NCBI GenBank assembly: GCA_030998015.1
Contig: JARWMV010000048.1
Location: 1-64,000, forward strand
Length of the DNA: 64,000 bases
From: Ceratorhiza oryzae-sativae
Taxonomy: Eukaryota; Basidiomycota; Agaricomycetes; Cantharellales; Ceratobasidiaceae
Direction of reading: 5' to 3'
The translations under genes and the position numbers were made by a program. Shown here in pieces: positions 31,571-53,646 of this stretch. Under the pieces are notes generated by a model that made no database searches, was not told the origin of the DNA, and was given only the letters and a program-made list of their open reading frames with translations. Within the stretch, counting starts at the first letter, position 1, and every line of letters begins with the position of its first letter.

Positions 31571-33384
31571 CTACAGAACATATCTAAACAAAGGACTTGC
31601 ATCGCCCATCTCCCTGAATTCGCTCTTGCGCTCATCGGTAATACCCTCGGCCTTGCACTGTGCCTCTTTTTGCTTGTTAAGTCGATTCAAGTTCCACCAA
31701 GTAAAACCGGCAGCGGTGAACGCCATGCAGAGAGACCCGAGCACAACATTGTGGCCAAGTTTGTAGCGCGGAGCATCCTTGGCCCGGTAGACAAACGAGG
31801 CACAGATGCCGCCGAGGTTACCAATGCCAATACTTAATACAACACGATGTCAGTATTAAAAATAGCATATAAATAAGCGAGAGAAAGACGTACGCCATAG
31901 CCAAGACGACTGCACGTTTGGTATCTCCACCAACGTTGTTGCTGATCCAGGAGATCAAGCACGGGACAGTCGAGTATACACCAGAGCAGGTCAAGAAGAT
32001 GCCAGCATAAGCTACGTCGGGATTGCGCGTCCCGCGAATCATGGCATAACCGGTGATACTGACGAGTTGCAAACCCATCACGAATGGGGCACGTCGTCCG
32101 ACCCTGTCGCTAGCAGTCGCGGCGAAATATGCGACGAACATGGCGAGGCAGTAAGGCGGAGTCGACATGAGTTGCGCCCGGGCAGCGGTGTATCCGAGAT
32201 CCTTGATGATTGTCGGGATGAACAGAGAGAAAGCGTATACGGGGATGAGACCACCGAGGTAGGCGATGCTGAAAACCCATGATTTGTAGTCGCAGAATGC
32301 CTGCTTGACAAACTTGGGCGAGAAATGGGTTGCGAGATCGGGAGAGTCAGCTTTGATCATTTCAAGGAGACGAGTGCGTTCAGAATCATCCAAGAATTTG
32401 GCGTTTTCTGGAAGCTATGAAATCATTGTCAGTCAGTCTTTGATATCGCCAAGCCAGTGAAGATCACGTACGTCGTGCATATAGAAGAACGAGACTAGGC
32501 CAATGACGATAGTCACAAGACCTTCAAGGAGGAAGATCCATTGCCATCCCTTCAAGCCCCCAAGACCGTTCATCTTGACGATGCCGTAGGCTAGGATACC
32601 GCTAAAAGCGCCTGAGCTCGTGGTCGACCTACGGCAACCAAATATCAACCAATACTCAAAAGAGAAGACTACCAGAGCCACTCACGCATAGAAAATGGCG
32701 ATACGTTGTGCGAGGCTTCCACGAGGGTACCACAGGGATATATAAAAGTTGATACCAGGGAACAGGCCGGCCTCGGTCACTCCGAGGAAGACACGGGAGA
32801 CGACGATACCGGGGTAGGTGTTGACCAGGCACATGAGGGCAGTGACGAGGCCCCAAGCAATCATTTGTCCTGGGAACCAGCGTGAAGCACCGATCCGCTT
32901 CATGGCCAAGTTGGACTATGAAAAATAAGATGAGTTAATTTATCGCAAAGTCATTAACATGCTTACAGGGATCTCGAAGGCACAGTACTTCAAGCAAGCA
33001 CTACCGTCAGTTTTTTTTTCATATTTCATGATGGCCCAAGACTGACAGTAATGTAGAAGACAGATGCCGCGATGTTATAGTCGAATCCTTTCAACTTGAG
33101 GTCTTTCTCCATGCCAGCGATCTTAGCATTCCCAAAGTTCGTGCGATCCCTTCAGATTCATGACGTGAGCGTCGCCACTCTAACTATAAAGAACGGATCA
33201 GGAACTTACAAAAAAGAAAGCAAGTGCAAGAGGATATGAGTGGAAGTATATTCCAATCAATCTTGCGCAATAGCCGATTGTCTGACAGTTGCTCGCCAGC
33301 TGGTAGCTGAGCGGCGGCGAGCGCAGAGCCTTTCTCCGAGTGCTTGTCGAGCGACGACACTGAGGGAGAGGACTTCGGAGACAT
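31571..33384 (-). CDS. MFS transporter, Dal5 / allantoate permease (ACS) family
   Basis: Start ATG at 33384 (MSPKSSPSVSSLDKHSEKGS), stop at 31571 (ends PLFRYVL). Family blocks in order: KIDWNILPLIS, DRTNFGNAKIAGMEKDL, FEIPSNLAMKRIGASRW, VVSRVFLGVTEAGLFPGINF, GWQWIFLLEGLVTIVIGLV, a central loop, and GFLIPVY-type helices ending in GVYSTVPCLISWISNNVGGD. About 12 membrane helices. Members import allantoate, nicotinate, biotin, pantothenate or other small anions with protons. The substrate cannot be told. At the first intron (GTAAGT after a run of six T) the exons do not join in frame: one more T would give LF-LDRTNFG. That suggests a homopolymer error or an unrecognised splice. Other joins look good. 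Confidence 0.75.
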
Positions 33385-34605
33385 GGCAAGACGGGATGGC
33401 CATCAGCAGGAGTTGCAGGCTCGTCTATAAACGAGGAACCTCGGCACGTCAAGGTACGGAAATGATGATTTGGCGAGGGGAAGAGGCACAAGAGAATTAG
33501 GGTGAGTTGCAACTAGAATCGCCGTGCCGAGAACAGAAGACCGAGTTTTCGTTGCCACCCAAACTATATGCGGATGGGAAGCAATCCGATGGTCGGAACC
33601 GTTTGATGTCTGGGACAGTAATAGTCTGCAACCTTGCGGCATACCAAATTTAGACGCCCCTTGCCTTCTTGGTGCTGAGTCAGCCATGCTGCAACGGGCA
33701 TAGGGTTCTGGGACCGAGCACCGGTACTGGATATCAAGTCTGCGATCAATGTATTTCGCTGCCCCATGTGGAAGATGCAACGTGATATTCACTTTTTGAA
33801 TGTTTTTTTAGTCTTCTCGCCCTTGCGATATGCCCTGGTAACTTCGATTCCGGAGGGTATTGTTTGACTGCCCAACTTCGACTTCTCACAGACTGATGCG
33901 TTCTGGCATGGCTCCTCGGGGTATCCCCCTTGGCGTGTTCCTGCAGCATTTCCGCCGGCCGCAGCACGAGTGCCACGACAAATAAATATGCATTTCAGGA
34001 TGGGATTTTCTATAGGTTTGCAATCGCACCTGGCACAGTACCTGATCCTCAGCCCGTGTGCCTCAAGAACGCAACCCCTCCGACTTGTGCCTTCCGACCT
34101 TGCAAATCAAATGGGCGTATTTTCACACCTCCATGCCGAGCCAGGTTCGAGGGGCTGGCTCCGGTAGACGTAATTCGACTCACTTGCCTGATCGGTTTGG
34201 GAGGAGTTTGACAGCGGCATGTTGGACGGTGCGGCTATATCGTGATTATCATGACCGCTGCTGGCAAAGCAGGCAAAGTTCAGTTACCGTGAGGGCCTAC
34301 TACCAACCTCGTGGATGAATGCGCTTCCCCCGTGCGACTCCGGTGTATCACCCAGTTAAGGATCGAGGCTGACCGCATATGCTGCCAGCCCTGTTCCATC
34401 GCCATTACCCCGGCTTGGGTTCTGAGAACAGATTCTGGGCACAAGGTCCGATATTGAACATGCTTGGCCGCTTCTCGGACCTGAAAATATCATACATCAT
34501 ATATAGGACCTTGTCTTGGTTGGTCTTGGTGGTCTCGGCTCACTCGGTTGCGTTCCTACGCTTTACTTGGTTGTACATTAGTCCCCCACCGTCCTCAATT
34601 CCGTC
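33385..34605. other. divergent intergenic region
   Basis: Lies between the divergently transcribed MFS transporter and DUF6533 genes and must hold both promoters. No ORF with family motifs and no clear TATA box was seen. Confidence 0.4.
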
Positions 34606-36618
34606 ATGCCCCCAGTGCAGACTATTGTGAGCCGAGGGTTTGACGTCCTACTCGTCGCGACTGCGGCGGTCAGCCCGTCGTCACAAACCGCGGCATATAT
34701 GCGTATCGCAGCTATGACAATGGCGGCGTATGAGTGAGTGTTGAATTAATAGGTAGTTACATAGCGAGCTGACGTTTTGGCTCATAGTTGGCTTGTCACG
34801 CTGAAGCCGGAAATCAGATTGTATAGACGGCACAGGACGCTTAGCAAGGCCGTTGTACTTTTTGCATCGATCCGGTACGCTTTACCGCTGAGATTATGGT
34901 AAATTCTGGCACTCAAATCATCAAATGAATAGGTACGTGAGCATTGCAGCAATCATCACCTCAAATGTTGGCTTTTTCGGAACCGGCTTCTCGGGCCGGG
35001 CGTGTCATCACTACCACCTTGTCGCCCCGCTATTGAAAAGTCAGTCGAACTGCATTATCATCCCGGTTCTTTGTACGCTAAACCTATAATTACTTTTCCG
35101 ATACAGTGTTTGCGACTCTGATATCTCAAGTCATCATCTCTATCCGCACTTATGCTATCTCACGCAAGGCGCGTTGGGTGCTCTGGACGCTCTCAGTATT
35201 GTTTGTGCTGTCATGTGTGGTGAGTCACCATGGACTGGATTCGTTAATTTCATATTGATGGGCGTGGATATTACTCGGTTTATTTTTGGGGACGGGCTTG
35301 GTATCGTTGCAATTATTGTTGTGACGGGATGACAGCCCGAAGTTCTTGGGAACGCATGGCAGCGAAAGTCCGTGCAAAATTCTCAGGTATGTTCCTGGCT
35401 GCTTCTCTGGACCGTGATTCTGATGAATATCGTGTTACACAGCTCAAGTGAGTGCCCTACATTTTTTTAAAATTCACATATCTCAGCAGGCTGACCTTCT
35501 CCACTCCCTCGTATGAACCCCAATTTTTGAACTTTGCACAGCTGTACCTCTGGCAACCTCCCAACCCACAAGATTGCATGGTTACATTACCTCGCGGCGG
35601 TGGTATTCGATACAGTTGCGATGGGTATTGCGACGTTCTATCTGTATTCACCAACGAAGAGATCGTAAGTTGATGGTTCCTCGTACCCATTCATTTCCGC
35701 GCCTAATATTCGCCCTTCAGAATCACGGGCCTTGCGAAGGTCATGCTTGAAGAGGGTCTTATGTATTTCATTTTCCTCACTGGTCAGTGCATCTCGACAT
35801 CACCGGAGTATATCTGGGCTGACACGTGTTGAACTATACTGATTTTGACATACATCATGGGCTGAATCTGACCACGCTGTCTCACGCCACCTGATCTGAC
35901 CCCGCCACACTTGTGTCACACTGTTCTCCCACAACTAATCCGTTTCGGATAAATAGTGGCAAACATTGTGAACCTGGCAATGTTCCGGATGGCCGATATT
36001 TCTGCTCAGTCGTGTGCTGCTGTGTTTGGCCAGGCCGTTACCATGATCATGAGCCAGCGCATCATACTCAATTTGCAGGGTCAGTACCGTACATCTGGTT
36101 GCTATTAAGCTACCATCGCTCACCTGCTATTTTCCATCATGATGAATCTTCCTACTGGTTTCCCTTAATCTCGGACGCATCATGAATGATTCGAAATCTC
36201 GTGGGACACGATTCAAACTTGGCCGGCGACTCGGGGTTTGCTGGTTTTTTGGGGAATTTTTTTTAACTTCGCAGAATGGACGAGCGAGCCGAGTCAAGCA
36301 CCTTCGCATTCTCACTCGACACCTAACTACGCTATGCATGTTCTCCATCAACGATCGCAGACCGGGACAGGCCCTCAAACCCCGAGCCACCTGATTTCTA
36401 CAAAGCACGACGCTTGGCTCGAGCCCCGAACGCTTGAACAGAAGCGGTCTATTCATAATCACGGGCATACGCGACGCCCGAGCTCAGGAGCATATGACTT
36501 CAGTGATGGCAATGGTAACGTCCCGACTGTTCACGTCGTCGTGGAGCGCGAGGTGCGGTACGACGAAAACGGCAGTGTTTCTGAGAAATCGATCTCAGAT
36601 GGGACTCTAAAGAAGTGA
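34606..36618 (+). CDS. DUF6533-family multi-spanning membrane protein
   Basis: Exon 1 (34606-34733) ends AAY-D and joins at 34788 to WLVTLKPEIRLYRRHRTLSK, the N-terminal DUF6533 signature common in mushroom-forming fungi, where dozens of paralogs occur. Hydrophobic segments follow: VLFASIRYVSIAAIITSNVG, KMFATLISQVIISIRTYAIS, WVLWTLSVLFVLSCV, WLHYLAAVVFDTVAMGIATF, LEEGLMYFIFLTVANIVNLA, giving about seven helices in all. A cytoplasmic tail follows (TPSHLISTKHDAW to VVVEREVRYDENGS) and ends SDGTLKK. The layout resembles a receptor, but no function is established. Two later introns are long for this genome (about 35830-35956 and about 36080-36274). Confidence 0.7.
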
Positions 36619-39600
36619 TGCGGTGAACGACGAAAATGCTCTTAGATTTTAAGGTTTGGCCGATTTTTGCTATCTTTCTTCTGGTTATACTTCTTCGCCA
36701 CCCCCGCTCGCTTTATTCTCCCACTCATTACCACTTGTTAGTTCTGATAAAAAACAATGTACATGCTTTTGTTTGGTTACATTCGTGCTACCTCTGAGTC
36801 CACCTATAGGTCTTTAGTTCATTTTGGGCATTTATATCAGTTATTCAGCGACTCTTCATCGTCCGGCAGTGGTGCGATCAAAGCACAGAGTTCAAGTCCG
36901 AGCTGAGTTATTCTGTGTCCACAAAGATCACCGAAAACTCTCCAATAGCTTCGAGATACCCCCAGATGGCAGGCTTCTTACCGAGAGCTTCGCGACGCCA
37001 GGTCGGGAACACAGGGTGTGAAGCATGTAGTGACCAGCTCCACCCAAGTTCACAGGGCTCTAGTCACCGATTCCTCGGAGCGAATGCCAATGGACCTGCA
37101 GAAATTTTCGAACTTGGAGTAGTGACTGGGCTATAGGATGTTTAGTTGAAAGCTCCCTCTGGTGTAAAATTTCTGGGATGGATCATATGTCTACATGCGC
37201 TACATCGCAGAGCCACGGCTGGTATCCAGTCGAAATGGACAATGTCTCCTTTGTCTCCATGGTGGTAAACGTATACAATCGAAACCGGCCCGAAAAGGAC
37301 TGAGCTCGTGTGTTGCAAGGCACCTGATCGTGAATACGCGACATCTCTCATTATGCGTGATATTCTCGGCGCGGTATGAAAAGGGCACATAAATACGTAT
37401 TCGCTCGTCTCATCGACTGGTCAGTTTCAGTATCGAGTGACATATTTTATGATGCAGGAGAGATTAGCCGAGTTTTATTGAGGCTATGATATTTAATTAA
37501 ACTCACCCCAGTCAATTGACTACAACTTCGACCTCCCAAGAGGGCAAGGTCTCCGAGCACCACATGCACGGTGGAAAAGGTTGTTGAGCCTGCGACACAC
37601 TGCCTCCAAGTTGACCGGGTTGCCGTTATTACAACCGTAGCCATCCACGAGTCTACGAAAAAATCGCGCGTCTCTCCCTGACTCTCCTCAAGACTAGTTG
37701 TACGGCCACTTGCTTGGCAGATTTTGTCACAGTTCCATTCTACAAATGCAACGACATATGCGCCTAAGGAATGAACAATTGCCATTGACGCAAATCTCTC
37801 GGGCAACTCCAGTTACAGTGAAGTTCGCTGACTGAGTGAGACCGCACATTGAATAACCGGCCTATTGGCATAAAACAAAGGGCAATGATGCGAATCCATT
37901 AAACCATATAGATGATGCTTTAATCAACATGTTTGCCACTCCTTTGCGCTCACACCTTTTCGAATATTTTTATTTCTCAACATAGGTGAACGCCAGCCAC
38001 AGGCGACGCCTGATTTCAGACGCATGTGGTCGACTATCTGGGGCTCATAATACAACTTCTCGCCTTCAAATTCTGTTAAATGATCCCGTACATATATCGA
38101 TGGCGTACCGGTGTTGTGCCTTTCGGTGTGTACTGTTTCCGACGTGTGTGTTTTATCTTCATTCGTAAGTGCATCGCCCGCATACACGCTGATGTGCTAC
38201 CTGGTTTCTCCTGTCGCATACTATATAAACCAATGTATGGATTGCTTGAACTAAAGTGACGTTTCCTCCACTCTCGTACAACGAGCTCGATCCGTTTCAC
38301 TGCACTGCGCCAAGTCTTATTTGACGATCACTTATTGTTACCGCTTCAACAAATCCGCGTCCAATCGCAAGAAGGGCCATGACATAGATACTGACAGGGT
38401 TGTAATTCCACCATCTCTCTCTTCGGTAAGAATTTGATGACACCCCGTATGGGCTATGATCAAATAAACCATACGCAGAACGAATTTGAATGATATTTTG
38501 GATATCCAGTCGAAATCAGGCGTGCCTATCCGCGACCTAGTTATTGAACACGCCGCTTAATATGATTATGCTAAGGGTAACACGGTTTCAGCTAATCACC
38601 ACCGAGCGAAGCGGGAAGGCATGGATCATTTTTCCGGTCTCCTTGTGGCGTGTAGCTGAGGGTGCGTCGTCATATTATCAACCCTATAATGATAATGAGT
38701 AAGTTAGTTTGTGAATGAGTCCAACTATGAAACGTCCATTACATCAAAGCTAGAGAATTGAATGGGATCCTGAAGACCAATCACAAGCATTAGCAATGAA
38801 AATATCCAGCTAACAATTCCATCCCCTGGCTCGGCATTGAACAGGGGAAATTAAATTCTATTCCTTCTCATCCCTTGATAGTCTCGAATCGCTAGGGGCT
38901 TAGTACTGATATTGAAGCGAATTGATCCGACGTGAGGTGTGAGAGACTAGAAGCCTATCATTTTCTGGGTTCGTCATCGCATGGATTAGGCCTTCGTCTC
39001 GTCTACCGCCGGCCCCCATGGGCCGCCCCTCACGATCCAGCCTGGACCTAGCCTTGACAAATTACCATCAAATCTAGTTTGCAAGATATCTGACCAAAAG
39101 TCGTGCATGTGCTGCAGCATTCCTTGGCCATAAGCTTCAAGTGTTGCGTAGCGGCGGGTGAGTACGGATTCTCTGGATGGATTCCTGGGTCACGGGTGAA
39201 GCTAAAGTTTGGAAACTTGCTTGTTGAATTTGATGCGATTTCTCACACATATTCGTCATTTCCCACCACCTCATATACCACCATGAATCTACGCATACCC
39301 CGCGCCACCTCGACCTGAGTTGTATATCAACAAACTCGTCTACTCTATACTAGATAACGATTTACCCATGCTCATTCCCTGCACCATAAGCCATAAACTA
39401 AAGAAGACTGTGCCTTCTGCATTGCTTGCAAGGAATATCCAGCACAAGCGCAAAGAACTGATTGGAGTGCTTAAGCAGTACGTGATCGCGTGCATGCCGG
39501 CGCTGTGACGTAGTTCACCGGTGGATGGAGGAGCCCGTTTTACCCGCCAACCGGTAGGGCATCACAGGGTATAACGCAAAACCCCACGCCATAAATTTCA

Positions 39601-40817
39601 GTATACTCTAAGAAAAATCAACATTATCGCTAACACAGAGTGGCTCTACTGCGCAACATCCCGGTAAATACAAACAAAAGTCGCCGCGTGGATAGCGAAA
39701 ATACCCGCTTGAACAAGGAATCGGTCATAGGATAGGTGTGCAGGGATAAATAAATGTGTGCGCATAGGTTGCGGCCTGCGGAGACGCAAGGCAGCACATC
39801 TTAAAGACTTTCGTCTTTAAGATCTATGACCTAGCGTTTGCGTGTAGTGGAAGCAAAGGCATATGAATCTCTGATTATTTTCTACATTCTACAGTTGCAC
39901 TTATATACATTAAAATGTGAGATAAACGGCAGGGATACGTATATGCGCAGCGTGTAAGCTGAGACATCGGACCATCAAGTGATCTGAGTGTGTGCTCTTC
40001 AACAGGATACTCAGCCGCCGTTCGCAAGAGCCACGTCGGTTACGTGGGTTTTTACTTGTATGTCCCCCGTTGCGTTACCATGTGTTCGTGTAGGTCTTTA
40101 AATATGTTTACAAAAAAAAAAAAGCAGTGGCAACGTGTTCTTATTCCTGGATTATGGTCCTTCCCCCCTCCACTACACTCGAGTCCCAGTCGCACGAGAC
40201 CGTTGGAAATTCGGTCTAACGGCGCTTATGGCGCATTTGTGGCTGCATAAGGGACGATACGCCGTGCGGGTACGGGCTATATCTCTCTTACCAACTTGCC
40301 CCATTTTGGCGATTTTTTGTCCCACCTCCCCACCGTTTCTGGAGTACAAGGATCTGCCACCTGCCCATTGGCCCCGCTCGCGTGACTGGCGGTACGGCCA
40401 TACATCCGCAAAGCGGCTTCGGCACCTCTGGGATCTCCCATTCCACGGTGACCTGTCCCTTTATGCAGCATAGAACTGCTAATTATATTATATGACCCTT
40501 GATGATTTCCGCTTGGCTTGGCTCGTCATCGAAGTATAGCAGTTTATATGTAGGGTCTCGGGCTACGACGGATGAGAAGATCTTGGCCCAGACGTGCGAT
40601 AGACGCCCTGCCGAAATTTCCAATTGAACCGAGAACCGGGCTTTCCGCTAAAGGCGCGTTCATGGGCAGCAGGATCTACTGTTGGCATTCCACGACCAAT
40701 TGATTCTAAACGATGAGCAACTCTGATTGTACATCAACCATGTAGATCCCTGTATATAACGCCATCTTTCCGCGAGCAATGATATACATTCAACCGCTTT
40801 TTTTTGTGCTGGGCATA
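36619..40817. other. 4.2-kb region without a recognisable gene
   Basis: Both strands read. Frames at 37447-37806 (minus), 39103-39508 (plus) and 40135-40473 (plus) are open for 60-120 codons but show no family motif or intron pattern. A perfect 11-bp hairpin, ATCTTAAAGAC-TTTC-GTCTTTAAGAT, lies at 39799-39824. The right end holds the promoter of the protease fusion gene. The stretch may be worn transposon DNA. Confidence 0.4.
40753..40759 (+). promoter_or_regulatory. TATA box of the caspase-subtilase gene
   Basis: TATATAA, 59 bp before ATG 40818. It supports 40818 as the true start of the fused gene. No such box lies before the internal ATG at 42126. Confidence 0.55.
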
Positions 40818-43777
40818 ATGTCGCGCGGGTTGTTGGGCCGAAACTGGCGTGTGGAGACTGAAGAAGGCGATTTTCGGTATGCATCTCACTAGTCTCACCT
40901 AGCGCATTTGTAGCTGATGTTCTGGGAATGTGCCCAGCCCACCCTCGGGGCATGTATCACCTCACGGGGGAGACGGGTTGAAGTCTCGCAGATCTTCTAT
41001 CGTGCCGAGCCCGCAACTATTTGCTCTTGTCATTGGCATAAACGACTACCCAAAAGTCAAGCCGCTTCGTGGCGCGGTAGGAGATGCGCGGGCGATGGCA
41101 CAATACCTTCGCGATTTGAATATCCGCGATGATCACATAACCACGCTATATAATGAAGAAGCGACTCACGCCGCCATCGTCAATGAAATGAAAAGCTTTA
41201 TGGATGATGACCGTATCCAGCTGGGTGACGCAATGCTTATATTTTTCGCAGGCCATGGATGGGAGGGGCCTAGTCGGTTTGTGGTGTCAGCAGAGCCAGG
41301 GAATTTATGGAATATTTGGAACTTCGGCAGTTTCCCGAGAACTTCCAGTAGAACAATCCGAGGACTAGTGCCTTACGATGCGGGAACTATGGACTCTCAC
41401 GGCAAAACAGTTGGGGTTATTCCTGAGCATTCCACAGCGATTTTACTAAAAGAAATAGCTTCAAAGAAAGGAAATAACATTGTACGTGTTTGGGCTTGAC
41501 TTTTGATAGATCTTTGGGCCTAAATTAACCATATAGACGGTAATATTCGACTGCTGTTTCAGTGGGGGCATATTCTCGGATCATATAAACACCCGCTACA
41601 TTGGGCCAACGGACCTGCCAGCAAAAGTTTCAAACACAACAACTTCCCTTAGCAGGCTACGTCAGGACCCAAGAGAATATAGCACGCTCATTTGGGCGTG
41701 CCACGCAAATCAGCCCGCGTTCGAGCTGAACGAGCGAGGACTCTTTACCGAAGCACTGTTGTCAACTTTGCGGGACTCCACTCTAGATACCCTGACCTAC
41801 GCGGGACTGGCAAAGCGAGTGACTAGCAAAGCATTGCTGCAGTTAGGGTGTGTTTTTTCCCGGCGTATGCGTGATGGCAGCTCTCAAAGCCCCCTAACAG
41901 GCAACACCCCGTGTGTGAAGGGATCAATCGGGACCGTATAATATTCGATGGTAGAGTAACTGGAAGTACACTCAAAAAGTCAATGATGGGCGATTCAATG
42001 CCGAAGATACGAGAGGAGTCTTATCCTCATGTAGAGTTCGATCTGGCTAAACCCGGAGATAAAAGCGCTATAGAAGATTGCTACATTGTAGGTTGTCGCT
42101 CAGCTCTCACGCCTGTCATAGAGTCATGACTGACTTCTTGCCCAAGATTACCTTGACGGCTGAGTCGGACAAAGAGCTCCATATGAAATGGATACGCAAT
42201 CTAAGCAAGGACTATAAATCTTGGGGAATGCAATGCGAGGTTCTGTTTGATTATGACAGTGAGTTGAGCTTTGACGTCTTCAAGCACGACTCAATTCAAT
42301 TTAATATTTATCCAGTAATCAAAGGATATGCAGCTATGCTAGGATCGGAAGCTTTGAAGGCGGTGGCCAGGTGCCCTGACGTCAAACGCATCGCTCAAGA
42401 TAAGGAAGGGGCTGCCTGTGCTGTCGAGGCTGGCAAATCTTCCTTCGGATCCGAGCAGACAGACATAGCCGAGGCCGCAGGACTAGGGTACGCAGAGAAT
42501 TTGATTTGTTTCATTTCCGTGCTTGCGAAACTTTTTCCCAGAAAAAAATCACCGTGGGGTCTCCAGAGGATTAGCTACCGGGAAAGGCTGCCTCCCGGAT
42601 CCTGCCCAAATATTCTCGAGTACGATTTTATGGAGAACATTGGGCACGGCTCAAACCAAGTCGATGTATATGTACTCGACAGTGGCATACGCACTGACCA
42701 TCCAGAGTTTGAAGGCCGTGCAAGCTGGGGTGCTTCGTTCCCAAGTACGACCGAGACAGACGCCTCGGGGCACGGCACCCATGTTGCCGGAACTATCGCC
42801 GGGAGGCGATACGGTGTTGCCAGGAACGCGAACGTCATCTCTGTGAAGATTTGCGATGATGTCAAGAAGCAGTTTAGCCGAATGAGCGTGCTCGCAGGCT
42901 TTGATTGGGTCAAGAAACAAGTCCAGCGGACAAAACGGGCCAGCATAGTCAACCTTAGTATCGTTTATGAAGCGCCTTTCCCAGAGTTGGCGCAGTCGAT
43001 CGAGCAGCTGGTAAATATGGAGCAAAACCCGGTAGCTGTATGCGTAGCCGCTGGGAATAATGCCGGGGATACGCGTCACCGAAGCCCTGGATGTTTGTCA
43101 AGTGTAATCACAGTGGCTGCGTCGAACATCAAGGATGAACTCTGGTGCAATTCAAACTATGGTGACGCGGTCGACATCATTGCTCCAGGCGAGGATGTCC
43201 TTTCAGCCGATTACCAGGATGACTATGTGGGGAAGAGGATGTCGGGAACGTCCATGGCAGCTCCACATGTCACAGGGGTAGCTGCAACCATTCTTCGTTG
43301 CGAGAAACTGAATCCGACGCAGCTCCTCACACGACTTCAATCGCTCGCCGTCCCGGACGTGATACAGAGTCTCGATTCAAAGGTCACTATTTGGTAAGTT
43401 AATCAACCGTACTCGTCGAACATGCTAATTCTGACCGAAATGAATGTAGCAATATATTACTGCAGAACGGCGCACCCTCGTCAGGGCCGGAGCGCGAGCG
43501 GGTGATTGTACCCATATCCCAGTCCCATGTAGCGAATTTTTCAGGCGAGATAGGTCCAGGTGAACCAACTCCGCAAGTGTCAGTTGCCTCGCCTTCCAGT
43601 GGTGGATTCGCAGCGGGGGCGTGGACTCAATTTGTACCATTGATAATCTTGATTGTGTTGTATTGTTGTTGGCTACTTGTGGAATGGAGTGGCTTGCGAG
43701 ATCTCTTGTACAATCCCACACTGATATCTACATTATGCACATGTTTTTGGCGGTCCTTGGTTTATCTTCTTCTGTAG
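40818..43777 (+). CDS. caspase-like / subtilase fusion protease with C-terminal membrane anchor
   Basis: Exons 40818-40876, 40938-41481, 41537-41847, 41901-42087, 42147-42487, 42542-43393 and 43450-43777 give 2622 nt with no stop, 873 residues. Residues 47-330 form a C14 caspase-like domain (LFALVIGINDYPKVKPLRGA) with His126 (FFAGHG) and Cys208 (FDCCFSG). From about 366 an I9-type propeptide follows (DCYIITLTAESDKELHMKWI). From about 480 comes a proteinase-K-like S8 domain with Asp527 (VYVLDSGIRTDHPEF), His558 (SGHGTHVAGT), Asn653 (AAGNN) and Ser718 (GTSMAAPHV). These spacings are close to proteinase K. Residues 825-842 are a membrane helix and the last 18 are also hydrophobic. No signal peptide, so topology is open. 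The join at 42087/42147 has GTAGGT, a CTGAC branch site and AAG. Without it, a TGA at 42127 and an overlapping ATG at 42126 mimic two genes. Substrates unknown. Confidence 0.75.
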
Positions 43778-44381
43778 CTATACCATAAATGTACATAACG
43801 CTGTAGTCTCATTTCTATTATTAATGGTTCTATATCAGCCAATATACGAGTTGCTTCCTACATCCGCAAATTTTGCGCCTTTTAACTCCGGGGGATCAGT
43901 CGATTCATGCCGTCGTACCATGCCTTACTTAAATCCCTCGTAAAGTGATTAGCCTCATCATGGTGCTCCCGTTAAGGGTTAAATGTCCGCGATGACTAAT
44001 CGATCATGCCTCCATCCAGTTCAGTCCAAACGACAATTCATTAATCCAAACCAGGAGAATTGAAAAAGATATCCACAACAGACAGGGAGAAGAAGAAAAA
44101 AAAAAAGAGAGAAAAATGAGTTGGATTATGTACAAGACTATGACGATGAGTAGGAATGCATGATGACGAAACTGGCAATTGTCCGAAATCGTGAGTCTAT
44201 GAAACAAACTTGGGGGTAGTGTCAGTAAGGAGTTGTGATGTGAGCGGCGGGAAGAGTGGGGGACTGGGGTTAGGGATTGCGTTGGCTCTCAATAGAAGAG
44301 TCACAACCCCCAACCCAAATGGATCACGGCTAGCGCGGGACGAAAAGAACCACCATCACCAAGAAGACGCAACTCACATTC
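43778..44381. other. spacer between convergent genes
   Basis: 604 bp between the protease-fusion stop (plus) and the Rab stop (minus). An A/G-rich run lies at about 44090-44115. No gene. Confidence 0.5.
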
Positions 44382-45820
<1,439 letters not shown>

Positions 45821-46027
45821 TACAGGGGTATATGGTGTGCGGCGGCGGAGGAGATGGTGGACGACGGGAGCAAGGGGGCAGTGATCACTGGGCGGCTCCA
45901 AGACCGATGGGCTTACGTAAGCCACCTCGGCTCGGATGAGGCGAGTGAGGCCCTTCGTTCTCACCAGGGGTAAACACAACGCGTTGATTAAATCATAGTG
46001 GAGCAGACACGAGGCAGAACACATTGT

Positions 46028-47383
46028 TTATAGTTTAGGTAAAGGCTTGAACCTCGCCGGCTTCTTCGTCTGGAACACCCCAATCGCATCACCCGTATCC
46101 TGCCAGCTTGATGAGTTTGGCTATCTTCGACTCTTGAAATAGACCTACCGATGACTGCAGCATGACTTGGTTCCAGGTTGCAACGTATTCCAGATTTTCG
46201 TCCACCCTGCGCCCCAGACCATGAACGAGCAGCAGAGACAAAGGAAGGCAAGACTCACGAATGGTCTCGTGCGTGTAATAAAATCCTCTTGGTCCCAACA
46301 ACCGCAATCGGGCTCTTGCTAGCAATGGCCTTGGCCACCTCGAGCGCCTCCCCTTTATTCTCTATTTAACCTTGGACAAGTCGAAAGCGGGAAAGCAAAC
46401 GCACGAATAACGTCCTGCCTTCCGCCCGAGACGATCCTTGAAATCATTCCCAGCCTTAGAGCATCCTCGGGCCCGAATACTCGAGCAGTAAGCGCGAGCT
46501 CTCGGAGGAGCGATTCGTTGCCTGTTATTTTCGGCAAACGTGCAAGGGTGCCGATATCTGCGGCTAGGCCTACGTCTACTTCCTATTTCAATCGCACATG
46601 GGCATCGGGCGGAAATAGGGAAGCGGGACGAAATTTCAAGCGGTGGTGAATCCAAAGCCAAGATTAGAGTGGGCAAGAGCACAATGAGATTATGTACAAC
46701 GAACCTTGATCGAAAATTTCGCATTCGGGCTACTCAGCCTGATATCGCAACAACATAGTATATCAATGGCGAGACCATAGGCTACCCCATGAACAGCCGC
46801 GATAACTGGCTGGGTGCACTTCTCGATCGAGGATATGCACGCTTGAAAGTGCTATTCACATACATACCTTCATCACTACGAGAAGAAGAAATGCTGAATA
46901 ACGACGCACCAAAATATGATCCCTCAGCTTCAAACTCATCCGTGCCGGATCCAGCCCCTCGGTGTTCACCAAGCTACCTGTATCCATCACTACTCTTCTT
47001 ATTAGTGCACTTCAAAGTGGCCAGAGAGACCAAAGATCGGGTCGAGAGTGTGCATCAACTCACAATCCAGTCCTGCGGTGAAAACCTTCTCGAACCCGGA
47101 AGCAAGAACCACAGCTCTTATGCTCCCATCTCTCGAGATTTTATCAAACGTCGAGCCAAGTTCTTCCCAAAATCTTCGAACTTTCAATACAATCAAAAAA
47201 AGGCGGTATATTTTGCGTACGGTTGATTAAATGCATTTACGGGCGCTCTTCACGGCCCGTCAGGAGAGCGAAGAAAACACAGGGAGCGAGAAATACCCAC
47301 CGGTTCATTTCAACTAGCAAAACGGTCTCATCTCCAAGTGGAGCAGTTACTTTTACAAATTTGTTCGATGAAAATGCAGCCAT
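46028..47383 (-). CDS. enoyl-CoA hydratase/isomerase family, dienoyl-CoA isomerase-like
   Basis: Start ATG 47383 (MAAFSSNKFVKVTAPLGDE), stop at 46028. Blocks in order: FWEELGSTFDKISRDGSIRA, VVLASGFEKVFTAGLD, CTQPVIAAVHGVAYGLAIDI, CCCDIRLSSPNAKFSIKEVD, VGLAADIGTLARLPKITGNE, ALTARVFGPEDALRLGMIS, and a C-terminal QTKKPARFKPLPKL. The oxyanion-hole loops and the acidic VDVGLAADIGTL motif match delta3,5-delta2,4-dienoyl-CoA isomerase (ECH1/Dci1), which reshuffles double bases... bonds of unsaturated fatty acids during beta-oxidation. The final PKL fits the peroxisomal PTS1 consensus, so it is likely peroxisomal. One oddity is GLAIDI where relatives usually have GGGID/GAGID. The first intron joins were not resolved. 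The dynamin gene ends 270 bp upstream on the same strand. Confidence 0.75.
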
Positions 47384-47652
47384 ATTTTTGTTGTCGAGCG
47401 GCGGAGTGGACCAGCCTAGATCGTGGTCGTTTGCGGGGAACAATTTCCCTTCCGGCTATTCCGGGTCAACATTGGGGCCGGATGGCACGTGATTCACACC
47501 CAGTGGCTATAGCGCCACTTGAATGAAAACTCGAGGACGGATAAATACATGGAGCCAATGCGACTTGCCTAAGCGCTAAATGAAGCTGAGAGAAATTTTA
47601 TATTCACAAGAGATAAATATAAAGAGCACCGAATATAAATAAATGATTTCAA

Positions 47653-50478
47653 TCAAAGTACCTCTCGCCTTGCCGCGTGTAGCAGCTTTCTCTTTGTCAA
47701 CAAATCCTTCCGCAGCACGGAGACAGAATCAGATTCCTTCAATAAATCCTCGTAGTAGTTGTCCGATTGCCCTTCAGCGGGTTGGATCTCGTCATGTAGC
47801 GCGTTCCGGATCCTCTTGCCAAACTTGCGGACGAAATATTGGTCGATTGTCATCGGGACATTGTCCGAAAATCGACGGTACGCAACTTGGCACGATGTCG
47901 TTTTAGGTTATCATAGAATAAAAGTTAAATTACTTACTGTGATAGTGCGCTCGGGTGCTGGCCATAATTTCCAATGCACTCTGATGTGCTCCGTTCAGGT
48001 TCTGCAATGACGGACCCCGGACTTTCTTCCCAAACTCTCTAGTATTCACCGATCCGTCGGTCAATGCATCAACAGCTGCATCAACAATAGCCTCTCCGAC
48101 TCGTTGTAGTTTATCCATCGGGTCGGGCAGCATGAACACATCTTGATAGTATCGCAGGTATTGGGCTTTGTATGTTTTGAATTGACCAACGTGAGAGGTG
48201 TAGGGTTCGGACTCTTGTTCTAGTAGAGCCTCGAGCTGAGTAGTGGTTTCGTCCTTGCAGTCCTGCAAAAGGCGTCCCGTAATCTCGCTGTTCAATGACA
48301 TCCGTTAACATCACTGTACGAGAACAAGTACGTAACTTGACAAACCTGACAAGTTCCTCCAACTTTCCATGATGATACATCCCGAAATGCGCGTTGACAA
48401 TCTCATTCAGTATTTTCGCGAATGAGTCTTCCGTATCGGAAACAAGGGCGCGGACAGGTTGGTGCCATGCGTCGACAACCTTTGATATTAGTTGCTTCTT
48501 GACTTCGAACGGGTAGTCGTCTAGCCGAGCGTATTGTCTCAGGTAGGGCAATAAAAATATATATCAAAACATACCAGGAAACTCGCGAGTACGTGCCCTG
48601 TTATACGTGGTGAGCAAGGTGTATGCGCGACCGACTTGAAAATATATCACCATTTCGCGGCTGCATCCACTTCGTCGAGCGTAAATTCGTTCCCATACGG
48701 TGAAGAGTTCAGCCATAATTCGTCGTCTGGGATAAAGTCTGGACGAGGCAACTCCTTCTCTCCATCCTCATCGAGATCTTCAGCTCCCTGCTTTCGTAAA
48801 CAAAATACGAGACCAGCTCCCTGAAGGTCCTCCCGAAGAGCCTCGTACGAAGCATGAAGCCTTTGCATTAGTCCCAGCTGTCCCGCCAACGGATCCCCTC
48901 GAACCAGTTTGACCATGACATCGGCGACGAATTTGTCAATGAGGTCCCGAACAATCGAACGAGGGCTCCCTTCGCCTTGCTTTGGAAGTTTCTCGAGCTG
49001 GGATTCGTTGTCGCGAATTAGGCGAGCTATCTCAGTCCGGATGCTCGGTAAACTAGATCATATGTGATCAATAATCCTCTAGCGCAGAACATTGCACCAT
49101 CTCACAGTTTCTGAATCGCAATCGAAAGAACATCCCCTAGCTGGTGAGCAAGTTTAGATGCACCAAGATTCTTTTTGTGGGCAGAAGGAATTGTCGACCA
49201 TGGAGGCGTCGTCTCGAAATACTCCATTTCTTTGGCACGCGCTCGTTCCCATGTGTAATTTCGAGACCGTAGTTCCTTGGAGTTGGGCTGCTTCACCACA
49301 AACCAACCGTTTTTCAGCGAGTTGGCTTGGCCGGTAATCATTTTGATCCAACGCTCCTCTTCACCTGCTTCGATCCGATCGGGCTTTGTCAAAACGCCTA
49401 TCCTGGGTTGAGTTGTATGTTATGAAAAAGAGAAATAAAAACAAACCAATCGTGCGCTCGCCCGTTGGATCATACTTGCGAGCTAGGAATACTGATTTGT
49501 GGGTCTCAAAGTCGCCTTTGATACAGGTTGAGCACAAACAAACGTATCCTATACACCAACTTACTTTCGCAGGCAACGACGAGAAGAATGAGCGCAGTCG
49601 GTGCTGCCATATAGCTCGTGACCAGATCCTCGACCAATTGAATATCATTTTCGGTTAGGGAATCGGAGCTGTTTGCAATCAGACCTGTTGAGTGATATCG
49701 CATTCAGACACGGCTTGAGCGAAAGTCGACGGCGAAAGGCTCACCCGGGAGATCAACAAACGTGAGGTCGGAAAGCTCTTGTCCAAAAATTTCAATCACA
49801 ACAGTATCTCTTGTAAATGAACGGCCTTTCGGCTCAAGATCCTCATTCAAAAACCGCTTCGGGTCGATTTCAGGGCAAAGAACGGCCTTTTGGGCACGGG
49901 CAATTCGGTCTTGGACATAGTCCTTGCTTCGGAGAGTATCACCTGATAATCGTTATTTGAGAATTTTCATAAATTACCGATCGATTGCAACGCCTACCAA
50001 ATGGTATATCTACATCTCCTCGACTGCTTAAACCGGATTCAAATCGCAAGGACACACGCGCTTCCCAAGCGCCTGTTGTATGTCGTAAACGGCACTCGAT
50101 TGGACATCTACGCAATGGCCCTTAGTTTCTTATCTGCAAAGAGAACTATTTGGTACATGCCTCGTGCATGTCCCGCTCTGGCGAGGGAGATTTATCTACA
50201 AAATCGTACAACAGATATAGTCGGGTCCGATTAGAACATATCGTGGATGACGCTCACCCCCGATAAGGCTTCTATCAACGATGATTTGCCAACACTCTGA
50301 GACCCAACGCAGACCATGTTTGGTAGTTCGAGATCCCTGCTGAAGCTGCACCATCACACGACTCATGAGACTCATGGAATGCAGGCATCAAAAGAAGATA
50401 GAATCACCCCATAGCGCGCAGCGAGTTCAGGGTATCAAGCAACTTGCGCCGAGTCGCGCCATTGGCGTCGTTGTTCAT
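47653..50478 (-). CDS. dynamin-family GTPase
   Basis: Start ATG 50478 (MNNDANGATRRKLLDTLNSL), stop at 47653. GTPase motifs: GSQSVGKSSLIEALSG (P-loop), LPRQSGTCTR (switch I), DLTFVDLPG (G3), TKPDRIEAG (G4). A middle/stalk region follows (LPSIRTEIARLIRDNESQLE, RSIVRDLIDKFVADVM, ELPGYVPY-like region into RQYARLDDYPFEVKKQ), ending with a GED-like helix (DVSVLRKDLLTKRKLLHAARREVL). Dynamins oligomerise on membranes and drive fission or fusion. This one lacks a PH or proline-rich domain, as in the Mx-like and fungal dynamin-related group. About ten introns. One, after SGTCTR, seems to use a GC donor (AG|GCATGT..GTAG) leading into CPIECRLR. Upstream region 50479-52130 holds its promoter. Confidence 0.8.
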
Positions 50479-52130
50479 GTCGTGATACTCGACCATCGCG
50501 GGCAACAAGGAGGCAAACGGTGGAGAGAGAGGAACGAGGGTCGATGTATAGCCACGAGGGCCGGGGTATTTATGTTTGCTACTTTAAGGAATGAAAAGGG
50601 CACACATTCATTTCATGGAGGCCATGAGGTAGCCATGAGGATCCTTGCAGCCTGGTGTTGCATTGCGCATATACATACCAAACTTTCGAGGACCTGGCAC
50701 ACTTTCATCACCGGGTTGAGTTGTGGGGATTGTGCTATTGCCTCTGCTATGGTGTCTTTCATGGTGGTGGCCGACAGCGAAATGAGAGCAAGGCGTGTAT
50801 TAGATAATCAAGCAATCCATTAGTAACTCCGAACAAAACGAGGCAAAAGCGTGCCTTGCCCCCCTGAGCGTGAACGAAGTAGCGATCTTGTAGATAAGAT
50901 ACTAGAGTCTACGTTTTACTCATACAGAACTATTCATATATCGCTGGCAAGTGAAACCAACTAGTCTGGCTCGCCCCAGTTCTTTCATGGTTACGAAATG
51001 GGAATAGGGCATCGCCGCGAAACCAAAGGGTCGATTGGGCGTAATGATGGGTCATGAAAATGGAGAGTTGGGTAATGGTGTCGTTAGCCTGAATGGTCCA
51101 GGCGTGGCGAGGCGATGAGGTGTCATCACGTGTTCTTACACTTTTACGCTACTCCCGTTACTCCATAGGTTATTCTAGTTTTGGATAGAGCATCATGATA
51201 TAATGGTAGGCGCTCGTACCTGGGCATAAAAAATTGCCCGGCGCGCCTGTGGTCGAATTCAGATGGACTTCACTCAAGCCGCAGGATGCACAGTGGGATT
51301 GGAAAACAACCAAATTGACCAGCGGCGCGAATACGAAGCACGTATTTGCTTGCCCAAGCTCGCTAGATGTTGACCCTGGCTGAACTTCGTTCTCCGCCGC
51401 TTCTAAAGGCTGCAGACCACAAGATTGATATCGACGACAGCATCCCCCCCGCCCTCTTCGTTTTCACAGAATCAGCAAGGGGTCCAAGCTCGGCGGATCT
51501 AGACCAAGATACAAAAACCCTAGTTTATGCTAGTAGCCGGTGGGAGCCCAAGGTTTGTAGCTAGACTCTAGAGCCGCTCCATGGCAGTTAGAATACATGT
51601 AGACATTCAAAAATCCGCAGCGAAGGTTGCAAAGTCGACCGCCTTGAAAGAGCGGTACAAAGCCAGGGCAAGAATATGAATACTGTGGCTGAGCTATAGG
51701 GGCTCGATCGGAATCCATGTGCCGCGTGGCGAGATGAACACTCTCAGCGCAGAAAGGGCAAGAACACTGTCAGGTGCCCGCAAATTTCGCTCCAGGATTG
51801 GGTGATAATCACACCGGGAGCCGGCGCGGTGATTATCTGGAAAGGAAAAGCCTTTCAAGTGGTCGAGTCAGCAAGCTCGTGCAGAACCAGTGTCCGATTG
51901 CTAGGCTATGAAGAGGGCGAGTGCGGATGAGACCTCGTAGCGTGTGTTGACCGACGGCGAAGCAGAGGTGGTGGTCGGGATTTGGATGTTGAGGTGATTG
52001 TGCGTGAGTTCGAAGACCGGGTTCTGGGACCGAGTCGGTGCACGGGGTCTCCTTGATTGAGTATCGGGTGCTCCATGGACAAGTATATAAGCGTTCAGGT
52101 GCAAGGAGGTCCGGTTGGGTGCCCCAGAAC
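50479..52130. other. divergent intergenic region
   Basis: 1.65 kb between the dynamin start (minus) and the copper-fist start (plus). No gene recognised. The right end carries the TATA box of the copper-fist gene. No copper-response motif could be assigned with confidence. Confidence 0.45.
52084..52090 (+). promoter_or_regulatory. TATA box of the copper-fist gene
   Basis: TATATAA within GACAAGTATATAAGCG, 41 bp before the ATG at 52131. Confidence 0.55.
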
Positions 52131-53646
52131 ATGGTGTGTCCATCGTGTGGTTGGCTCTGCTTGTTCTGACATACCTCCAGATTGTCATCGACAACCAAAA
52201 GTTTGCGTGGTAGGTGCGTTTCCCTGCGCCGAACCTCACCGGCCGAAGCTTTCCTAGTTCGGCTTGCATCAACGGTCACCGCTCGTCCTCATGCAACCAC
52301 ACGGAGCGACCCCTGTTCGAGGTCAAGAAGAAAGGCCGGCCAGTTTCCCAGTGTGAGCGTTGTCGAACGCTCCGAAAGACCCGGTCGTACCACGAGAAAT
52401 GTGTATGTAACAAACCCGAGGCGGAGCAGGTACCCACGTCTAGCAACAGCCAACCAAAGGAGAAGCAAATCAAAAACGGTGCGGGCGCTCCCATTAGTGT
52501 TTGATCCCGACTCATCCGTTCGCAATGTCCCTACAGCACTCCGCCGAGCTCCTACAACTCCAGCCTTACCCAACGGCGTCAAGGATATTCTTGGCTCTGA
52601 GTCGGAGCAGTATGAAGGCAAGAATATATATCCCTATCTGTCCTTTTTCTTTACATTGCTCATATTCGGTGTCCCAGCCGGTGACGATTCTCGTGAGTCT
52701 TCTCGAGGTAGAACCGCTGCTCGAGGCAGTTTCACGGGTTCTACAGCTCAGGAAAGTGGTGGTATGCATAGCGCTGAAGCCGCGCATGTCCCCGACCCAT
52801 CTCCTCGGCGAGCATCCCCGTCCCACAGAATTCTACCTCCGCCTGAGAAATCAAATATTCTCGCAAGAAATCTAAACATGGCTTCTCAACCTCCTTCAAG
52901 CTGTTGTAATCAACCCGGCACCAATCCACTTGGTCTTTCATCCAGCGCCCTCGCCTCTTGCCACCTTCCGAGCATCTCAACCTGGACCTCAACCCCCCCG
53001 CTACTTCACTCGCTCCACATCACGACAACCAGTGACAGCTGTGGGTGCGGGAAAGACTGCATGTGTGCGGGGTGTGTACAGCACCGGGGGGCGGTCGCAG
53101 CGGCAGCGGCCATAGCCGCCGGACATGGAAGTTGCCCGGATCGATGCCAAACATGCCAGGATCAAGCCCTGACGGGATGCACATCTCCCCTGCACCTGTC
53201 GGAGCAGAAGTCGAGAGTCTGCTGACTCGTGCACTGGCGAAATTGCCCCCTCCGCCATCGGGTAGGCTCGGGGTGTTTCAGTCGACGATGGGGGGAAAGC
53301 AAGTCGCGCTGGTTTATTTCCCGGCTTCGATTCTAGGTGCCCGCGAGGATTTATCAGCACACAACGCACGCTCCAAACGGCCGAGGGAAGCACTGTCATC
53401 GGAAGGGGAGGATAGTCTTACAGACGCCGATGCAGAGGGGGAGGTTGAAGCGCCTCTTCTTCACAAGCTCAAATGCGACTTTCGATTGTTACTCCATCTC
53501 CACCAGCCTCACCACTCAGCGCCGCCGATAACGTAGCATCTCTCTCGCCAAGGCTTTACCGGAATAATGATTGGGCGCTGGCTCAGCTGGAGGTCGATGA
53601 AGAGACAGAACTGGGGATGGCCGTGGATGCAATCTCACCCAGATGA
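52131..53646 (+). CDS. copper-fist transcription factor
   Basis: The first exon is only the ATG (52131-52133). Introns 52134-52180 and 52210-52257 join it to IVIDNQKFAC and SACINGHRSSSCNHTERPLF, the copper fist: C-x2-C-x8-C-x-H binds zinc and the KKGRPVSQC loop contacts the DNA minor groove. A basic stretch (ERCRTLRKTRSYHEKCVC) follows. Later exons are Ser/Pro-rich and contain a Cys cluster, SDSCGCGKDCMCAGC, then CPDRCQTC. Such clusters bind Cu(I) in Ace1/Cuf1/Mac1 relatives and switch activity with copper. Then come ESLLTRALAKLPPPPSGRLG and an acidic tail ending LGMAVDAISPR. Exon limits after 52480 and near 53470 are approximate. Cuf1-type proteins control copper uptake and iron reductases, and a ferric reductase lies just downstream. 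Confidence 0.75.

What the first reader, a model, noticed from the sequence alone, without database searches (positions are those of the whole stretch)
40818..43777. Single gene fusing a caspase-like protease to a proteinase-K-like subtilase with a membrane anchor
Seen: seven exons sum to 2622 nt without a stop. The caspase dyad (His126, Cys208), the subtilase triad (Asp527, His558, Ser718) and the oxyanion Asn653 are all present, with a hydrophobic C-terminus. Known: C14 and S8 domains normally sit in separate proteins, and S8 zymogens are activated by removal of an I9 propeptide. Inference: the caspase part may cleave or license the subtilase part in one membrane-tethered chain, a possible self-contained cell-death or incompatibility effector. 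I know of no described protein with this layout.
Basis: partly seen in the sequence, partly recalled or inferred. Interest (0 to 1): 0.92.

Follow-up and report, generated by a model that had tools for sequence, protein, structure and literature searches.

The report
Fungal caspase fused to subtilisin-type protease
A fungal gene joins a caspase-like protease to a self-inhibited subtilisin-type protease in one chain with a likely membrane anchor, a combination not seen in the relatives searched, which could let one death-associated protease switch on another.

Summary
The join is supported at gene level. Exon 4 (41901-42087) carries, in one open frame, the C-terminal signature of the Agaricomycete caspase family (QHPVCEGINRDRIIF) and, 25 residues later, the N-terminal motif of a leaderless S8 family (YPHVEFDLA). 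The disputed intron 42088-42146 is the family's own: the same position and phase occur at five other I9 loci of this genome. The S8 module replaces the caspase family's usual C-terminal region of about 400 residues. A paralogue (L016) joins the same S8 module to a protein kinase, and relatives join the caspase to kinase or jacalin, so the gene belongs to a modular fungal set. The layout looks lineage-specific: 0 of 32 caspase relatives and 0 of 120 listed S8 relatives carry the other half. No transcript was available. Most likely mechanism (inferred): the S8 part matures as a membrane-bound protease held by an I9 tethered to the caspase, and the caspase releases it. New variant of a known kind; interest moderate.

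The parts
40753..40759 (+). TATATAA, TATA-box-like, about 60 nt before the proposed ATG
   Evidence: read; a consensus match only
40818..40876 (+). exon 1 with ATG (least certain part)
   Evidence: no homologue supports it
40938..41481 (+). exon 2, N-terminal part of the caspase (C14) domain; catalytic His126 at 41254-41256; may hold a further intron 41277-41339
41537..41847 (+). exon 3, C-terminal part of the caspase domain; catalytic Cys208 at 41555-41557 (3' end ambiguous: 41818, 41841 or 41847)
41901..42087 (+). exon 4, the fusion exon: caspase-family C-terminal signature QHPVCEGINRDRIIF (41902-41946) and S8-family N-terminal motif YPHVEFDLA (42022-42048) in one frame; the other two + frames contain stops
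42088..42146 (+). intron at the first strand of I9, after Tyr-Ile, phase 0; same place and phase at I9 loci L014, L015, L019, L022 and L023 of this genome
42082..42404 (+). Inhibitor_I9 propeptide domain (spliced; starts in the last two codons of exon 4)
42147..42487 (+). exon 5 (I9 and I9-S8 connector)
42488..42541 (+). 54-nt intron GTACGC..TCCCAG; frame is open through it, so retention would add 18 residues
42542..43393 (+). exon 6, Peptidase_S8 (42660-43298); Asp527 42678-42680, His558 42771-42773, Asn653 43056-43058, Ser718 43251-43253
43450..43777 (+). exon 7, family motif NILLQNGA, then a tail not seen in L016, with one hydrophobic segment (about 43625-43681); stop TAG 43775-43777

Best explanation
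One gene, made when a leaderless cytosolic I9-S8 protease module (proteinase K type) took the place of the normal C-terminal region of an Agaricomycete caspase-family protein. SHOWN at sequence level: the reading frame, all catalytic residues, the I9 between the two proteases, the hydrophobic C-terminal segment, and family-specific sequence of both parents in one exon. INFERRED: the S8 part folds and cuts itself after I9, as S8 zymogens do (recalled). This leaves two pieces held together without a covalent bond: caspase-linker-I9, which acts as a tethered inhibitor, and the membrane-anchored S8. An upstream signal that brings caspase domains together makes them cut the 46-residue linker or I9; the inhibitor is lost and an active S8 is released at the membrane, where it can cleave death or immunity substrates as HET-Q2 cleaves the fungal gasdermin HET-Q1. 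Probability that the fusion gene is real: about 0.88. Probability of this mechanism as stated: about 0.35. The confidence below is for the statement as a whole.
For: Fusion: exon 4 holds both family signatures in one frame. The caspase signature occurs in 20 of 24 relatives checked. Intron 42088-42146 is ancestral to the I9 of this family: same position and phase at L014, L015, L019, L022, L023 (L022 and L023 are identical there). Nine of 13 stand-alone S8 relatives examined, P0152 among them, begin without a hydrophobic leader just before the same strand. The only contig of this genome carrying both families is the window's: 16 C14 and 39 S8 exon-level matches (lower bounds), only C48 shared. 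Module logic: caspase fused to kinase (P0122, P0146) or jacalin (P0131); the same S8 module behind a kinase in L016; caspase fused to S8 here. Mechanism: I9 and S8 model together with mean pLDDT 81, and the model aligns over 421 columns, I9 included, to PCSK9; that the PCSK9 prodomain stays bound is recalled. In bacterial EACC1 systems a constant N-terminal caspase carries variable C-terminal effectors, peptidases among them, and effector deployment by auto-proteolysis is proposed (PMC7159879 section 33).
Against: No transcript or protein evidence. No orthologous fusion in another species: 0 of 32, 0 of 120 listed of 811, 0 of 120 listed of 7082. The I9 score only equals Pfam's cut-off. No gasdermin recognised nearby, though Pfam may hold no model for fungal gasdermins. 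Caspase specificity is unknown, so a cut in the linker is a guess. The caspase lacks its family's C-terminal region and might be unstable or inactive. A C-terminal hydrophobic segment is rare in the family: 1 of 19 caspase relatives scanned (P0123) and 0 of 13 S8 relatives. In L016 the kinase-S8 join crosses a site with no GT donor directly after the motif, and the S8 paralogues L015 and L016 look frame-disrupted, so this S8 family also decays.
Confidence: 0.4

Rival explanations
1. Real fusion gene, but the caspase domain is only an input or scaffold module (senses, oligomerises), interchangeable with the kinase of L016; S8 activates itself when brought together, and caspase catalysis is not needed.
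For: The same S8 module sits behind a kinase in L016 and behind short or unrelated N-termini in L014, L015, P0152 and P0180, so it does not need a caspase. [quoted passage not shown]
Against: Both caspase catalytic residues and their motifs are intact here.
Confidence: 0.3
2. Two separate, overlapping or adjacent genes: a caspase gene and an S8 gene whose own start lies in exon 4 (for example the Met codons before YPHVEFDLA).
For: The relatives found have only one half (as far as listed); Met codons occur between the two signatures.
Against: The caspase frame has no stop before the S8 motif, and the shared exon is open only in this frame among the three + frames. An unspliced caspase mRNA would end at 42129, inside the I9 intron and after S8-family sequence. 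Only 25 residues separate the two signatures.
Confidence: 0.1
3. A young chimaera made by a deletion or rearrangement between neighbouring genes, translated but without a selected function.
For: Single copy, no second haplotype found; no orthologue among the rows seen; dispersed repeat pieces lie just upstream; no remnant of the lost caspase C-terminal region.
Against: 2.6 kb open in seven exons with six catalytic residues intact, while S8 paralogues L015 and L016 look broken. Both halves are far from any paralogue found: best caspase stretch 56% over 87 residues; S8 34-41% over stretches above 200 residues, up to 55% only over about 60 residues. So the parts are not recent copies of another gene in this genome.
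Confidence: 0.15

Closest known systems
Agaricomycete/Ceratobasidiaceae caspase-domain proteins (P0123, 727 aa; P0122; Rhizoctonia P0129)
   Same: N-terminal C14 domain, up to 44% identical over the region, C-terminal QxPxCEG..R.xF signature (20 of 24); P0123, alone of 19 scanned, also has a C-terminal hydrophobic segment
   Different: They continue for about 400 residues (AAxWxWH motif in 15 of 33 rows, absent in the window protein), some with kinase or jacalin; here I9-S8 follows instead, with no remnant in the window
Leaderless I9-S8 proteases of Rhizoctonia/Ceratobasidium (P0152, P0180 and others)
   Same: I9 plus S8 of proteinase K type, no hydrophobic leader, same start of I9
   Different: Stand-alone, about 380-450 aa, no caspase, no C-terminal hydrophobic tail in the nine examined
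Kinase-S8 paralogue L016 (contig C34 of the same genome)
   Same: Identical 9-residue motif YPHVEFDLA before the I9, then S8, ending NLLLHNGAPA
   Different: Protein kinase instead of caspase upstream; ends without the hydrophobic tail; no GT donor directly after the motif and the frame looks disrupted
Fungal gasdermin-controlling proteases (HET-Q2-type S8; CHAT)
   Same: S8 or caspase-like proteases joined to other domains, kinase-like ones included (PMC12881547, passages and section 21)
   Different: The passages read describe an S8 or a CHAT domain per protein; here a C14 caspase and an S8 share one chain, and no gasdermin neighbour was recognised
Bacterial EACC1 two-gene conflict systems
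   Same: Constant N-terminal caspase with variable C-terminal effector domains, peptidases among them, at least 33% with membrane helices (PMC7159879 section 33)
   Different: Bacterial, with an EACC1 partner; S8 is not named among the fused peptidases in that section

Membership tests
Peptidase_C14 (caspase/metacaspase superfamily) | Pfam PF00656 match and His/Cys dyad | tested here: met
   E=1.4e-15, 58.1 bits against cut-off 21.4; H126 in AGHG, C208 in DCCFSG; nearest solved relatives by sequence are metacaspases 4 and 9, E 9e-4 and 2e-3
Peptidase_S8, proteinase K-like | Asp/His/Ser triad and oxyanion Asn in S8 fold | tested here: met
   E=2.1e-34; alignment to alkaline protease 1 and proteinase K; model matches 5z6o, TM-score 0.90 by target length
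I9-S8 zymogen | Inhibitor_I9 directly before S8 | tested here: met
   I9 21.2 bits, equal to its cut-off; six loci of the genome (L014, L015, L016, L019, L022, L023) show the same start of I9
Agaricomycete caspase proteins, canonical layout | C-terminal region of about 400 residues after the caspase | tested here: not met
   tblastn of five such regions: no match below E 0.1 in the window outside the caspase exons
Fungal gasdermin-activating protease (HET-Q2 type) | Gasdermin gene next to the protease gene | tested here: inconclusive
   No gasdermin among Pfam matches (E<=0.01) in six frames over 31201-40802 and 43801-53402; Pfam may hold no model for fungal gasdermins
Fungal gasdermin-activating protease (HET-Q2 type) | Cleavage of a gasdermin | not testable with these tools
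   needs biochemistry
Fungal NLR with N-terminal S8 | NACHT or NB-ARC domain in the same protein | tested here: not met
   only C14, I9 and S8 at E<=1 in the 891-aa version
Bacterial EACC1 caspase systems | Constant N-terminal caspase with another effector domain behind it | tested here: met
   definition from PMC7159879 section 33
Bacterial EACC1 caspase systems | EACC1 partner gene | not tested
   no EACC1-specific search was made
Bacterial EACC1 caspase systems | Bacterial host (actinobacteria, some proteobacteria) | tested here: not met
   48.8-Mb genome with spliced genes, closest named relatives Ceratobasidiaceae fungi

The most novel reading that the evidence does not exclude
A single-chain two-protease relay: the subtilisin's own inhibitor (I9) is covalently tethered to a caspase, so a caspase signal directly destroys the inhibitor and frees a membrane-bound subtilisin. 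Kinase-caspase, kinase-S8 and caspase-S8 fusions in one fungal family would then be snapshots of one kinase-to-caspase-to-subtilisin death or immunity cascade.
Probability: 0.25. Interest if true: 0.82.

Novelty: new variant of a known kind. Interest (0 to 1): 0.55.

Why it matters
What switches on the proteases that activate fungal gasdermins is an open question (PMC12881547 section 21, names it as future work). A natural caspase-S8 fusion, together with a kinase-S8 paralogue and kinase-caspase relatives, gives a concrete, testable wiring: which module acts upstream, and whether a caspase can release a subtilisin from its own propeptide. If true it would be a protease cascade packed in one gene.

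Tried and rejected
Tried: (1) a relative with both halves in three protein searches: none among the rows listed. Searches list only 120 of 811 and 120 of 7082 hits and scored only the ~8000 candidates sharing most words, so a distant fusion could be missed. (2) Another C14-S8 locus in the same genome: no other contig holds both. (3) Remnant of the lost caspase C-terminal region: none below E 0.1 outside the caspase exons. (4) A second haplotype of gene or flanks: none, apart from one 66-base match. (5) Kinase domain in the ~1.5 kb upstream of caspase paralogues L009, L010, L012: none found; L011 and L013 were not scanned. (6) Gasdermin neighbour by Pfam: none recognised. (7) Literature on a C14-S8 protein: none seen in listings; only openly licensed PMC papers are held. 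The main text of a survey of 993 fungal subtilase genes (PMC5371821) holds the words caspase, fused and kinase 0 times. Of the papers named I saw: PMC12881547 passages and section 21; PMC7159879 passages and section 33; PMC8195603, PMC3501461, PMC4986451 and PMC5371821 passages only; the rest only as search listings. The original HET-Q1/HET-Q2 paper was not seen; it is known to me through PMC12881547 and recall.

Rejected: S8 starting on its own at 42126 (it would skip the first I9 strand and the conserved intron); reading the 54 nt at 42488-42541 as necessarily coding (a GT-AG intron fits; retention cannot be excluded).

Full report
What was checked. The window lies in G000:C48 of a 48.8-Mb genome in 253 contigs. 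The closest named relatives of both halves include Rhizoctonia and Ceratobasidium proteins, so a fungus of the Ceratobasidiaceae or near it is inferred. Pfam finds C14 (E=1.4e-15), I9 (E=4.7e-4, exactly at its cut-off) and S8 (E=2.1e-34) (on an 891-aa version that keeps the 54-nt intron). Soft spots: exon 1 rests on frame only; intron 3 has three possible positions, all with the same downstream frame; and the alignment of P0122, but not of P0123, asks for one more intron (41277-41339) in exon 2.

Why it is one gene. First, exon 4 (41901-42087) is open in only one of its three + frames. In that frame it begins with QHPVCEGINRDRIIF, the C-terminal signature of the Agaricomycete caspase family, found by pattern in 20 of 24 relatives examined (misses P0127, P0134, P0135, P0138). 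It ends with YPHVEFDLAKPGDKSAIEDCYI. The first nine residues of that are identical in the S8 paralogue L016, and related stretches lead into the I9 domain in L015 (ATVEIIMAKKDGVPDSYV) and L022/L023 (TKVEFAKHDGVTGSYI). Second, the disputed intron 42088-42146 sits after Tyr-Ile in phase 0 at the first strand of I9. L014, L015, L019, L022 and L023 have a GT directly after the same Tyr-Ile/Val and an AG directly before the next strand; L022 and L023 carry identical sequence there and may be two copies of one gene. L016 has the acceptor but no GT donor directly after its Tyr-Met, and the L017 motif was not found in one frame. Third, the caspase frame has no stop before this intron; unspliced it would end at 42129, already beyond S8-family sequence.

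What was swapped. Caspase relatives continue for about 400 residues after the signature; an AAxWxWH motif of that region is in 15 of 33 rows and not in the window protein, and tblastn of five such regions finds nothing below E 0.1 in the window outside the caspase exons. The S8 half belongs to a leaderless branch: nine of 13 S8 relatives examined start without a hydrophobic leader, for example P0152, MAKEGGIPDSYIVILKETSD; P0158, P0165, P0172 and P0174 have one. The hydrophobic C-terminal tail is absent from L016, which ends at NGAPA, and from those 13; among 19 caspase relatives scanned only P0123 has one at its C-terminus.

A modular set. Among ten caspase relatives scanned, P0122 and P0146 carry a protein kinase and P0131 a jacalin domain (P0122 and P0146 are partial records, and P0122 could be a model that merges neighbours). 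In this genome L016 runs in one frame from a kinase C-lobe (Pfam E about 1e-11 and 5e-9) into YPHVEFDLA and then, across a splice site without a standard donor, towards I9-S8. So kinase-caspase, kinase-S8 and caspase-S8 pairs all occur. This suggests that the three modules work in one pathway (inference from fusion logic). No kinase was found in about 1.5 kb upstream of caspase paralogues L009, L010 and L012.

Against. No second protein with both halves was seen: 0 of 32 hits for the caspase region, 0 of 120 listed of 811, 0 of 120 listed of 7082. In this genome 16 C14 and 39 S8 exon-level matches share only contig C48. I do not take it as one, because those homologues are distant and the exon evidence is direct, but it does limit the claim to one lineage and leaves a functionless chimaera possible. 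There is no transcript evidence. Dispersed repeat pieces lie upstream; gene and flanks have no second copy beyond one 66-base match.

How it may work. The S8 half, modelled from window 42147-43394 as it stands (mean pLDDT 81, pTM 0.80, 25 sequences; residues 94-128, which hold the 18 intron residues, below 50), matches proteinase K-type structures. It also aligns to PCSK9 over 421 columns, so the I9 part is included. From general S8 chemistry (recalled) the I9/S8 border would be cut by S8 itself and I9 would stay bound as inhibitor. Here that inhibitor is attached to a caspase by a 46-residue stretch (residues 320-365). The simplest use is that caspase activation destroys or detaches the inhibitor. 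A published parallel is the bacterial EACC1 system: a constant N-terminal caspase, variable C-terminal effectors that include peptidases, membrane helices in at least a third, and proposed effector deployment by auto-proteolysis (PMC7159879 section 33). A functional precedent for S8 in fungal death is HET-Q2 acting on gasdermin HET-Q1, and fungal gasdermin-controlling proteases fused to kinase-like and repeat domains (PMC12881547, passages and section 21). No gasdermin was recognised near the gene.

Verdict. Observation confirmed; the fusion is real at gene level with probability about 0.88; the licensing mechanism is plausible but untested (about 0.35). The layout is new to the searches made here but is assembled from known modules in a known modular style: new variant of a known kind.

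Noticed in passing
L016 (G000:C34:128500-132500), ORF 1220-1642 and onward: Protein kinase C-lobe running in frame into the S8 N-terminal motif, followed by I9-S8 sequence: a kinase-S8 fusion, with signs of frame disruption.
   Followed up: partly
P0122, P0146, P0131: Ceratobasidiaceae proteins joining the caspase domain to a protein kinase or a jacalin domain.
   Followed up: partly
L022 (G000:C17) and L023 (G000:C233): Matching copies of an I9 domain with the conserved intron; the nearest S8 match lies about 2.8 kb away on the opposite strand, perhaps a stand-alone I9 inhibitor.
   Followed up: no
L014 (G000:C16:19467) and L017 (G000:C232:3187565): Very similar S8 genes, the second with an in-frame TAG in the S8 match; duplicated or haplotype copies, one possibly broken.
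   Followed up: no
G000:C244:669581-732587: Cluster of many S8 matches within about 63 kb.
   Followed up: no
window 38200-40548: Dispersed repeat pieces upstream of the gene (for example about 39801-40004, 76-80% to six other places), leaving the promoter region repeat-rich.
   Followed up: no
window 31.9-32.9 kb and 43801-53402: Ordinary neighbours: Ras-like GTPase, enoyl-CoA hydratase-like and dynamin domains on the minus strand; copper-fist domain near 52.3 kb on the plus strand; MFS transporter on the minus strand at about 31.9-32.9 kb.
   Followed up: no
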